Under the pieces are notes generated by a model. That model was not told the DNA's origin. It ran no database searches and saw nothing but the letters and a program-made list of their open reading frames with translations. A DNA stretch of 29,684 nt, taken from the IMG/VR virus record IMGVR_UViG_3300030331_001467, positions 1-29,684 of that record; one strand, written 5' to 3'. Each line of letters begins with the position of its first letter. Positions within the stretch are counted from its first letter, which is position 1. Both the position numbers and the translations under genes were made by a program. Shown here piece by piece: positions 16,003 through 22,908 of this stretch. Source of the stretch: a virus.

Positions 16003-17289
16003 TTATACTGTTTCTTGTTGTTCGTCTTGCATTTGAACACCAGCATCATAAGACTCTTCTGCGTCTTTCATCATCTTTCTTAATTTATCAACACCAAGAT
16101 GTTTTACTGCTTTCGCTGTAAATACAAACTCACCATCTGATAATAATGCTGGGATAGAGTCTGAAGTTCCTGTACCTGGTCCTTCTACTTCTCCATCATC
16201 AGTAAATTCTGTTGCGACTAATTTAGGAATGATAGCTTCTAATTCAGGATGCATTTCAACTGCTTCATCTAATACAGTTTCTTCTTCATCTGATAAAGCA
16301 GATGTATCTATGATAGCATCCATTCCTTCTAAATCTTCATCTGTAATATCTTCATTGTCCATGTCTTCATCCATACCAACTGGTTTTTCTAACATAGACT
16401 CTTCCATATTCATTGGCATTTCTTCTACCATGTCACCTTCTGCATAAGCTTGATAGTCAGGTCTTTGGTCATATTTACCTTTTTCAATTCCTATCATACC
16501 ACCTATAGCAGCTTTAACTGGAGTTAATTTATTTTTTAATTGTTCTATTTGATTTTCAATTTTTTGTTTTTCAGCAGGGTCAACAACAACTTCTTCCATT
16601 GCTTCTAACTTTTCAATCTGTTTATTTATAATTAAATCTTTAACACTTTTATTATCTGACATTTTAGGTTTTGGTTTTAAATCTTCAATCTCAAATTCTT
16701 CAAAAGCTTCAGGTTCTAAGACATCATTCATATCATCTTTACTTACGCTTAAACCTTTATTATATTTCTTTCTTTCCATTAGACCACCATCAGCAGCCAT
16801 CTTAACTCCTCTGCCTTTTAATACATCTGCAAAAGTAACTTCACCATCTTTATTTAAATCAGGAAAAGATTTATCTGCTACATCACCTTTATTAAATCTA
16901 GTTCTTGAAGGAGACATCATTCTTGATGGCATTCCTTTTCTAGCACTTCTTGGAGTGCTTACATCATAAGGTGTAATACCCATATCTTTTTTATCTTCCT
17001 CTTTTTTGATAAAAGGAGGCATAGACATAAGTCCACCTGTAGCCATTTTCTTTGCTTTAATTTTTTTCATACTCATAATTCCACCTTTAGACATTTCTGG
17101 TTTTTTCTTTTTAGTAATCCACTCAGTAGTAGAAGATGTATCATCATCTTCTTTTCTTGTAATCCATTCTTTAGGAGTTTCTTTTATAGTAATCCAATTA
17201 CTTGTAGGTGAAGTATCTTCTGTTATATTACTATTTTTTTTAGTAATCCATTTATTCTTTTTTTGTATATAAATATTTTCTTCACTCAT
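16003..17289 (-). CDS. Virion-associated-type protein with WIT repeats and an EF-hand-like loop
   Basis: 428 residues, mixed basic and acidic. Four W-I-T motifs occur near the N-terminus (W14, W32, W42, W57), each followed by a basic stretch. Residues 144-155 (DLNKDGEVTFAD) fit a calcium-binding loop of EF-hand/dockerin type. Then come coiled-coil helices (EKQKIENQIEQLKNKL), an acidic region, and a C-terminal block GTGTSDSIPALLSDGEFVFT, which I recognise from phage structural or internal proteins. It lies between portal and scaffold. Function is unknown, and an internal virion protein is a reasonable guess. It has its own consensus promoter, and AGGAG 6 bases before the ATG. Confidence 0.65.
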   Translation of the reverse strand: MSEENIYIQKKNKWITKKNSNITEDTSPTSNWITIKETPKEWITRKEDDDTSSTTEWITKKKKPEMSKGGIMSMKKIKAKKMATGGLMSMPPFIKKEEDKKDMGITPYDVSTPRSARKGMPSRMMSPSRTRFNKGDVADKSFPDLNKDGEVTFADVLKGRGVKMAADGGLMERKKYNKGLSVSKDDMNDVLEPEAFEEFEIEDLKPKPKMSDNKSVKDLIINKQIEKLEAMEEVVVDPAEKQKIENQIEQLKNKLTPVKAAIGGMIGIEKGKYDQRPDYQAYAEGDMVEEMPMNMEESMLEKPVGMDEDMDNEDITDEDLEGMDAIIDTSALSDEEETVLDEAVEMHPELEAIIPKLVATEFTDDGEVEGPGTGTSDSIPALLSDGEFVFTAKAVKHLGVDKLRKMMKDAEESYDAGVQMQDEQQETV

Positions 17290-17308: not shown

Positions 17309-17337
17309 ATTATAGAAAGAATAAACTAATATGTCAA
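17309..17337 (-). promoter_or_regulatory. Perfect sigma70-type promoter
   Basis: On the minus strand TTGACA (17337-17332), 17 bases, TATAAT (17314-17309), in the gap before the 16003-17289 gene. Transcription would start near 17302, leaving a leader of about 13 bases that just includes the AGGAG. It would drive the internal-type protein, scaffold, capsid and everything downstream. Confidence 0.85.
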
Positions 17338-17339
17338 CA

Positions 17340-17561
17340 CTAATTTATTTTAGCTATATCTCTTACGTTATTGGGTAGGTTCTTCAACTTGTCCAGTAAA
17401 TTCCATCTCCCCTGGCATTGGTGTATTACCTGGTCCGATTGGGCTTTCGCCATTTCCTGGGTTGTTTGGTCCTGCATTTTCTGCAGGTATTCCTCCATTA
17501 CCTTCCATTGGTCCGAGTTCACCAGGGATAGGAGCTTGAGGGCTAGTTCTTTGGTTAACAT
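17340..17561 (-). CDS. Small helical protein nested out of frame in the portal 3' end
   Basis: 73 residues, MLTKELALKLLSLVNSDQWK, then MEEYLQKMQDQTTQEMAKAQ, then HQCQGRWNLLDKLKNLPNNV. It begins inside the portal gene in another frame and ends 28 bases after the portal stop. AGGA lies 7 bases before its ATG. The QGR...L..LK.LP pattern after a YL helix resembles the short protein commonly found right after the portal in other podoviruses, which is why I accept it as real. The portal frame in the overlap encodes a Pro/Gly/Asn-rich tail of low complexity, while this frame encodes a regular amphipathic helix pattern. Confidence 0.65.
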   Translation of the reverse strand: MLTKELALKLLSLVNSDQWKVMEEYLQKMQDQTTQEMAKAQSDQVIHQCQGRWNLLDKLKNLPNNVRDIAKIN

Positions 17562-19563
17562 TTTGTTGTCCTATTATTTTTGCGTAAATTTGTGCTTCAT
17601 CTTTTGTATTCATTATTTCTGCAGGGTCTAAATCTAATGAGTATGCTAACTCTTTTATAACCTCTGACATTCTAACGAATGGTGCAATAGCAGGATTCTG
17701 TACTGTTTGTAAGAACATAGTTAGTCTTTGACTTCTAACTTCTTTCTTCATTAAACTAGAAGAACCTGTTGCTTTAATTTCTAAATCACCTTGTATTGGT
17801 AATTCACCTTCATAGAATTGCATATTCCATTGGAACATTGCTTCACCTAAAGGTTTGATTAATTGGTCATCAATATTTTTAATTACTGTTTTAATATTTA
17901 ATGATGCTGCTCCCATTAACATTGACATACCTGATGCTGTTCTAGTCATACTTTGAACACCAGTTTGTCCATGTGAATAAGATGGTAAACCTGTTGATTC
18001 ATCTGCAAGTTGTCTAAACTTATCAAACATCTGCATATTTTCTACTGCAGTATTTGGAAACTTCAATCCATAAATTGATTGTCCAGGTACACCTGATTGT
18101 CTTTTAAATATTTTACCAGGAAATACTTCCATAGTTTGATTAGATGCTAAAGCAGATTCATCTACATCAAATACTAAGTTACCAGCTAATGCTAAATTAT
18201 CAATAGCCATTCTTGCATGACCATTCATAATTTGTTGTGCATCATCCATATTTTCAGGAACACCGATACCAAAAAATGCATATGGATTTTTTTCATATAC
18301 AAAAGCTTGATAAGGAGTTCTAAAAGGTTTAAATGGATTTTCTACAATTCTAATTACTTTATCTCTTATTGTCCAAACATTAACTTGAACTTCTGCTGAA
18401 TCATCAATGTCTTCATCAATTTGTAATCCTTCTTCTCTTGCAGTAAATGCATCTACTGTTCCCCAATATTCTAATACTTCAAATCTATAATTTTCTATAT
18501 CTGCGTATTGAGATTTTTCTAAATCAATATCTGTTTCCCAAGATTTTTTATTATACTTAGCTCCCATTCTTACACATTCTAAAATTTGTTCTCTGTTAAA
18601 GAATGGTCTATTAGCTAAATCTAAAACTTGAGATTTATTTAATCTATGTCTTTGAATAACATATTCAGCTTCATCCATGTTTCTAGCATTTGGGTCAGGG
18701 TAAAAATCCCATACTGAAACAAATTCTACTCTAGGTACTTTTACAAATTCAGGTTTGTATTCTCTTGCAGAACCATTTCCTGTTGAACCATATTTATGTA
18801 AAGTTTTATTAAATGTAAAAGGTCCTTTTAAAATTCCTGTACCTAATAAACAAGATTCAAATATTGCATTTCGTAATTCAATACTTCCATTTGATTCTTC
18901 TATTTGGTCGTGAATTAATTTTTCTAATTGTCGTGCTGCTATTTGTGCAGGTTTAATTTGAGGCATCTCAGGTGTAGGAGCAGGTCCTTCTGATAAATTT
19001 GCTTCTTCATATTTATCTTCTAAGCTACCTAAAAAATTATCACTTAAAGATTCAAATGTTGCACCCTTTGGTAAATCTCTTCCATCACCAGGAAAACCTA
19101 ATACTGAACTAGGAGATGAAGGTTGCATTTCTTCACCTGGCATAAAATCAGGATTACCTTCTATGTTTGGAACATTTTGATTAATACCTGTTTGTTCTTT
19201 TAACGGATTAAGATGAGCATATTCAGCTACACCTTCAGGTACTCTTGTTTCTTGAATAGTTAATGGAAATTTATTAGCACCAAATAAAACATCTATAAGT
19301 TGTCCATAAGCTGCTAACACTTTTGTCTTTGTAACTTTAACAAAGACTCTTGATTTTTCATGGTCTCTAAAAGCTACGTTCTTAAAATATCTTCCTCGAT
19401 AATTATGAAATGCTTGAAGCCATCTATCTTCATCATCTTCTCTAGTTTGTTCAGCTTGAGAAAATTTAGTTTTAACATGAGCAACTAATGCTGAAAGTTG
19501 TTCTTCTTCTTTAACATCAGACCCTTCCATAGGGTTTTGTGAATACGAATCATAAGTAGCCAT
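17368..19563 (-). CDS. Portal protein (P22-like size class)
   Basis: 731 residues. Forms the dodecameric vertex through which DNA is packaged. Seen: an N-terminal helical region (DEDRWLQAFHNYRGRYFKNV), NAIFESCLLGTGILKGPF, PRVEFVSVWDFYPDPNARN, the YVIQRHRLNKSQVLDL segment, QIMNGHARMAIDNLALAGNL and TGLPSYSHGQTG before TASGMSMLMGAAS. These are landmarks of long podoviral portals, and the length is close to P22 gp1. The last 65 residues are a disordered Pro/Gly tail that overlaps the nested gene. The gene lies downstream of TerL as usual, and a near-consensus promoter precedes it. Confidence 0.85.
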   Translation of the reverse strand: MATYDSYSQNPMEGSDVKEEEQLSALVAHVKTKFSQAEQTREDDEDRWLQAFHNYRGRYFKNVAFRDHEKSRVFVKVTKTKVLAAYGQLIDVLFGANKFPLTIQETRVPEGVAEYAHLNPLKEQTGINQNVPNIEGNPDFMPGEEMQPSSPSSVLGFPGDGRDLPKGATFESLSDNFLGSLEDKYEEANLSEGPAPTPEMPQIKPAQIAARQLEKLIHDQIEESNGSIELRNAIFESCLLGTGILKGPFTFNKTLHKYGSTGNGSAREYKPEFVKVPRVEFVSVWDFYPDPNARNMDEAEYVIQRHRLNKSQVLDLANRPFFNREQILECVRMGAKYNKKSWETDIDLEKSQYADIENYRFEVLEYWGTVDAFTAREEGLQIDEDIDDSAEVQVNVWTIRDKVIRIVENPFKPFRTPYQAFVYEKNPYAFFGIGVPENMDDAQQIMNGHARMAIDNLALAGNLVFDVDESALASNQTMEVFPGKIFKRQSGVPGQSIYGLKFPNTAVENMQMFDKFRQLADESTGLPSYSHGQTGVQSMTRTASGMSMLMGAASLNIKTVIKNIDDQLIKPLGEAMFQWNMQFYEGELPIQGDLEIKATGSSSLMKKEVRSQRLTMFLQTVQNPAIAPFVRMSEVIKELAYSLDLDPAEIMNTKDEAQIYAKIIGQQNVNQRTSPQAPIPGELGPMEGNGGIPAENAGPNNPGNGESPIGPGNTPMPGEMEFTGQVEEPTQ

Positions 19564-22829: not shown

Positions 22830-22858
22830 ATTATAGCATTTATAAATCTAGTTGACAA
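22830..22858 (-). promoter_or_regulatory. Leftward promoter of the packaging operon
   Basis: On the minus strand TTGTCA (22858-22853, five of six consensus bases), 17 bases, TATAAT (22835-22830). The expected first transcribed base is the A of the TerS ATG at 22823. The -35 overlaps the plus-strand string GTTGACAAC. Confidence 0.7.
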
Positions 22859-22879: not shown

Positions 22880-22908
22880 TTGACAGATGCATGAAGTGGG
22901 TGTATAAT
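22880..22908 (+). promoter_or_regulatory. Rightward early promoter, perfect sigma70 type
   Basis: TTGACA (22880-22885), 17 bases, TATAAT (22903-22908). Start expected near 22915. It is divergent from the TerS promoter, with about 21 bases between the two -35 boxes. It reads into some 550 bases of non-coding leader before the first gene at 23466. Confidence 0.85.

What the first reader, a model, noticed from the sequence alone, without database searches (positions are those of the whole stretch)
17340..17561. Real gene nested out of frame in the 3' end of the portal gene
A 73-codon frame with its own AGGA ribosome site overlaps the last 194 bases of the portal gene and ends past its stop. It looks like a genuine helical protein and recalls the small protein that follows the portal in other podoviruses (YL...QGR...LK.LP). 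The portal frame there is a low-complexity Pro/Gly tail, as if it had been extended over an existing gene, or the reverse. Annotation pipelines would usually discard it.
Basis: partly seen in the sequence, partly recalled or inferred. Interest (0 to 1): 0.7.

Follow-up and report, generated by a model that had tools for sequence, protein, structure and literature searches.

The report
Hidden gene nested in portal gene
Phages of the ocean's most abundant bacteria (SAR11) carry an unannotated 73-residue gene read out of frame inside the end of their portal gene; both proteins written in that DNA are conserved, and each has a relative in other phages that is encoded on its own.

Summary
In detail: the reading frame is a real gene. 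The window is an HMO-2011-type podovirus; its closest isolates are SAR11 phages HTVC103P and HTVC104P. The +1 frame at the portal gene's 3' end encodes a 73-aa protein, intact in all 222 SAR11-type portal loci examined and unannotated in the four isolates checked. Substitutions there concentrate at the nested gene's third codon position (589 against 307 and 328); in relatives without the nested gene the portal's third position dominates. A profile made only from stand-alone small genes that follow the portal in HMO-2011, roseophages, CHOED and others recovers it (E 1e-13). In such relatives the +1 frame of the portal tail is closed by stops in 90 of 96 loci, here in 0 of 222. AlphaFold2 gives a confident helical hairpin (pLDDT 95).

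The Pro/Gly portal tail is not filler: its motif is conserved and shared with relatives whose two genes are separate. So both members of the overlap have non-overlapping homologues, which ordinary overprinting does not give; how this arose is unresolved. The protein's function is unknown; a portal or head-assembly cofactor is my best guess.

The parts
17340..17561 (-). nested gene, 73 aa, frame +1 relative to the portal gene
   Evidence: intact in all nested-type relatives; selection; profile of stand-alone homologues E 1.1e-13, the only significant place in the six-frame window
17569..17572 (-). AGGA ribosome-binding site, 7 nt before the nested ATG; AGGA or GGGA/GGGG at this place in most nested-type relatives
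   Evidence: The same bases encode portal residues Ile/Met-Gly, so conservation of the site is not independent of the portal
17368..19563 (-). portal gene, 731 aa (SU10_portal Pfam PF23899; PHROG 332 head-tail adaptor / PHROG 1216 portal)
17368..17561 (-). dual-coding stretch: portal Pro/Gly tail (frame 0) and nested gene (frame +1); G+C 47% against 32% in the rest of the portal gene
   Evidence: composition; constraint in both frames

Best explanation
A real, unannotated gene. It is the SAR11-phage orthologue of a small all-helical protein whose gene directly follows the portal gene across HMO-2011-type podoviruses and their kin. Here its first 64 or so codons are written in the +1 frame of the portal gene's Pro/Gly C-terminal tail. 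It is most likely translated from its own internal Shine-Dalgarno site on the portal mRNA. The two products can share the DNA because the tail's Gly, Pro, Ala, Thr and Ser codons leave their third base free, and that base is the second, residue-defining base of the nested codons. Shown: the ORF, its conservation, its homology, purifying selection in both frames, a confident helical-hairpin prediction. Inferred: translation, and a role as a small late cofactor of portal or head assembly (its gene lies between the portal and the scaffold-like and capsid genes).
For: Open with ATG in 222/222 nested-type loci. Substitutions in the overlap by portal codon position 589/307/328 over 89 disjoint pairs, i.e. 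an excess at the nested wobble base, against 34/22/118 in tails of relatives lacking the nesting and 1037/461/3365 upstream in the portal gene. A profile built from 12 stand-alone small proteins finds the nested ORF in all nested-type loci, E about 1e-16 to 1e-7. Natural control: the +1 frame of the tail has stops in 90/96 loci whose small gene is separate, 0/222 where it is nested, including L285/L280/L307, whose portals are 83-86% identical to nested sisters. The portal frame is constrained too: recoding the nested gene synonymously gives stops in 100% of trials and drops Pro+Gly from 38% to 8%. AlphaFold2 pLDDT 95, helices 4-14, 17-39, 43-60, 62-71; best viral fold matches are 70- and 76-residue proteins, TM 0.83-0.85, though with E 0.06-0.09.
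Against: No expression or mass-spectrometry data were available. The family matches nothing of known function. The role in portal or head assembly rests on gene position only. Part of the conservation of the ribosome site is forced by portal residues. The portal model is poor overall (mean pLDDT 50), so the tail's disorder is only weakly supported.
Confidence: 0.88

Rival explanations
1. On the history (compatible with the best explanation). Ancestral overlap, later unpacked: the common ancestor already carried both genes in one stretch; in HMO-2011 and other lineages a duplication separated them, one copy keeping the portal tail and one the small gene.
For: Both the tail and the small protein look homologous between nested and separate states: tail 21/25 residues identical between HTVC033P (nested) and HMO-2011 (separate), small protein by profile. 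Descent from one overlapping stretch is the only history in which both homologies are plain descent. A return to the separate state is seen once (L285/L307).
Against: No vestige of the small protein in the +1 frame of separate tails, nor of the tail in the other frame of separate small genes; the register test is not convincing. The separate state also occupies the deeper branches of the tree, so several unpackings would be needed.
Confidence: 0.4
2. On the history (compatible with the best explanation). Packing: two adjacent genes became one stretch in the ancestor of the SAR11 phages, one of the two sequences being re-evolved towards its old motif in the new frame.
For: Parsimony on the portal tree: one gain of nesting and one loss, with separate outgroups. 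Composition and codon usage of the overlap fit the portal frame far better than the nested frame (-0.34 against -1.18, 55/55), as if the small gene were laid over the tail.
Against: Requires convergence of a full-length protein or of a 25-residue motif; no mechanism is known. Portal extension over the old small gene is blocked by stops in 96/96.
Confidence: 0.35
3. The ORF is a by-product: the conserved portal tail happens to leave the +1 frame open.
For: 24-56% of synonymous recodings of the tail stay open in +1.
Against: Frame closed by stops in 90/96 homologous tails where the small gene is separate; substitution pattern follows nested codons; homology to independent genes.
Confidence: 0.02

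Closest known systems
Small gene following the portal in HMO-2011-type phages (HMO-2011 gp50, CRP-2 gp59, CRP-235 gp42) and in CHOED_090, phiM6_11, MQM1_05
   Same: Same position after the portal, similar length (60-78 aa), shared W...YL...QG...L..L pattern, detected by a profile built from them alone
   Different: There it is annotated in most records and overlaps the portal by 0 to about 100 nt; here it is buried in the portal tail and unannotated
Overprinted / overlapping genes of viruses (reviewed in PMC8227390; codon-usage dating in PMC3744397)
   Same: Two frames of one stretch both under selection, +1 phase, one product Pro-rich
   Different: The standard model has one ancestral and one de novo frame (PMC3744397); here both products have non-overlapping homologues
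PHROG 9763 and PHROG 1461 (unknown function)
   Same: Weak matches (E 0.003 for the window protein; 0.0016 for the HMO-2011 homologue)
   Different: Single weak matches, not supported by other members of the family

Membership tests
small protein family encoded after the portal (HMO-2011 gp50-like) | sequence homology over the full length | tested here: met
   profile of 12 stand-alone members, window E 1.1e-13; all nested loci
small protein family encoded after the portal (HMO-2011 gp50-like) | gene lies at the 3' end of the portal gene, same strand | tested here: met
small protein family encoded after the portal (HMO-2011 gp50-like) | compact helical fold | tested here: inconclusive
   AlphaFold2 pLDDT 95 for the window protein; stand-alone members were in its alignment but were not folded separately
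small protein family encoded after the portal (HMO-2011 gp50-like) | presence in the virion or role in head assembly | not testable with these tools
   no proteomic data found for this protein
overlapping gene pair under dual selection | purifying selection in the nested frame | tested here: met
   stops 0/222 against 90/96
overlapping gene pair under dual selection | constraint in the host (portal) frame of the same stretch | tested here: met
   tail motif conserved across nested and separate loci
classical overprinting (one frame de novo) | one of the two products lacks homologues outside the overlap | tested here: not met
   both have non-overlapping homologues

The most novel reading that the evidence does not exclude
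A gene pair that moves between a fully nested and a separate arrangement while keeping both protein sequences recognisably the same: either an ancient overlap unpacked by duplication in several phage lineages, or two pre-existing genes packed into one stretch. The L285/L307 lineage, inside the nested clade, would be a recent case of the nested copy closing once a separate one is present.
Probability: 0.5. Interest if true: 0.75.

Novelty: new variant of a known kind. Interest (0 to 1): 0.58.

Why it matters
Annotation of an abundant ocean phage group misses a conserved gene, most likely because gene finders discard long overlaps. More generally, overlapping genes are taken to arise by one frame being invented on top of another; here both products have relatives encoded on their own in the same gene neighbourhood, so the making and unmaking of an overlap can be followed in hundreds of sequences. 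It also suggests why Pro/Gly/Ala/Ser/Thr-rich tails are permissive hosts for a +1 gene.

Tried and rejected
Chance open frame: rejected. Second copy of the small gene elsewhere in the window: none by six-frame profile search. Vestiges of the overlap in phages with separate genes: tail +1 frame and small-gene alternative frame against profiles with synonymous shuffles, no signal (an earlier run was confounded by the real partial overlap in HMO-type loci and set aside for the separate loci); order-permutation test, none with the profile of separate small proteins; base agreement in the nested register, rank 4, 39 and 2 of 41, not convincing. L285's separate small gene as a recent copy of the nested gene of its sisters: not supported, 31-36% protein identity while portals are 83-86% identical, so import by recombination or fast divergence. 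Known families in Pfam, PHROGs and solved structures: only weak, scattered matches. Papers on this gene or on an overlap with a portal gene: none found in the held library. Two family searches failed on wrong coordinates and were repeated.

Full report
What is there. On the minus strand, the portal ORF 17368-19563 (731 aa) contains, in its last 194 bases, the start of ORF 17340-17561 (73 aa) in the +1 frame, with an ATG and AGGA seven bases upstream. The portal is a SU10-type portal (PF23899; PHROG 332/1216). Its nearest isolates are the SAR11 phages HTVC103P and HTVC104P (75% identity), then HTVC115P, HTVC033P, and the HMO-2011 and roseophage group. The window is a 29,684-base virus record.

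Conservation. tblastn finds the 73-aa protein under the portal annotation of HTVC103P, 104P, 115P and 033P, and none of the four records annotates it. In IMG/VR, 68 loci encode a relative. With portal-based scans I assembled 321 distinct portal loci. A profile made only from 12 stand-alone small proteins finds a homologue near the 3' end of the portal in 320 of them; 223 fell in the nested class, one of which (L362) I reclassified by hand as separate, leaving 222. In these the frame is always +1 and the start always ATG, 173-224 bases before the portal stop.

Selection. Over 89 disjoint pairs of nested loci, differences by portal codon position are 589/307/328; the excess position is the wobble base of the nested codons. 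Upstream in the same portal genes the counts are 1037/461/3365, and in tails of relatives with a separate small gene 34/22/118. Each of the three nested clades shows the same excess. Mean pairwise protein identity in the overlap is slightly higher in the nested frame than in the portal frame (0.79 against 0.71, 0.81 against 0.77, 0.88 against 0.82; pairs not independent). The portal frame is nevertheless constrained: recoding the nested gene with the phage's own codon usage gives portal-frame stops in all trials and cuts Pro+Gly from 38% to 8%.

A natural control. In 90 of 96 loci where the small gene is separate, the +1 frame of the portal tail holds stops; in 0 of 222 nested loci. The tail motif is shared by both. 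The clearest case is L285/L280/L307: portals 83-86% identical to nested sisters L275, L277, L279, L281 and L305, tail motif 19/25 identical between L285 and L279, but the +1 frame is closed and a separate small gene starts two bases after the portal stop. So the open frame tracks the need for the small gene, not the conservation of the tail.

What the protein is. It is the orthologue of the small gene that follows the portal in HMO-2011 (gp50), CRP phages, CHOED, phiM6, MQM1 and others. Over 79 aligned members W19, Q50, G51 and L62 are nearly or fully invariant. AlphaFold2 on that alignment gives four helices with pLDDT 95. No family of known function matches. Foldseek against viral models ranks 76- and 70-residue proteins first with TM 0.83 and 0.85, E 0.06-0.09; their lengths equal CHOED_090 and the Rhizobium phage N3_19 homologue, but I did not verify that the accessions are those proteins. 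Function: I favour a cofactor of portal or head assembly, from position alone; this is inference.

Why two genes fit. The nested codon's second base is the portal codon's third. Gly, Pro, Ala, Thr and four of the Ser codons leave that base free, so a tail rich in them allows many residue classes in the +1 frame. This follows from the genetic code; that it explains the retention of the overlap is inference.

The unresolved history. The tail is not filler. A profile of tails from separate loci scores nested tails at a median of 26 bits; the best of 1115 shuffled tails reaches 11, though the lowest-scoring nested tails overlap the shuffles. HTVC033P and HMO-2011 tails share 21 of 25 residues. Hence both overlapping products have homologues that do not overlap. 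On the portal tree the nested state forms one clade with one internal reversal and separate loci outside, needing two changes (FastTree, long-branched outgroup). Codon usage in the overlap is much closer to the phage norm in the portal frame than in the nested frame (-0.34 against -1.18, 55 of 55 loci), which by the logic of PMC3744397 would make the portal frame the older occupant of this DNA, although the small-protein family is itself found well outside the nested clade. Tests for vestiges of an ancestral overlap in the separate loci were negative or inconclusive. I leave two histories open: ancestral overlap with unpacking, or packing with re-evolution of one sequence.

Literature. The HMO-2011-type group and its split into subgroups I-VI and VII-X (HTVC033P in IX) is described in PMC9038755; the word 'overlap' does not occur in that paper. 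No paper on the nested gene was found in the held library.

Noticed in passing
17309-17337 (-): Exact sigma-70 consensus TTGACA-17-TATAAT between the nested gene and the next gene (16003-17289). In HTVC103P-type relatives 51 of 92 have 11 or 12 of 12 matches in this place; in HTVC033P and HTVC115P types none reaches 11.
   Followed up: partly
22880-22908 (+): A second exact TTGACA-17-TATAAT on the plus strand, with an 11/12 site facing the other way at 22830-22858 (-): a possible divergent promoter pair near the junction of the left- and right-going genes.
   Followed up: no
L275, L277, L279, L281, L305: The nested gene appears to start about ten codons further upstream; an ATC for ATA change in the portal Ile-Gly codons removes the +1 stop that other clades have there.
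   Followed up: partly
L148 (CRP-345) and phage CRP-1 (H69): The stand-alone small gene after the portal appears unannotated in these two roseophage records.
   Followed up: no
16003-17289 (-): Lysine- and methionine-rich 428-aa protein with repeated ITKK and GG(I/L)M motifs; only its C-terminal 50 or so residues match tape-measure PHROGs, weakly.
   Followed up: no
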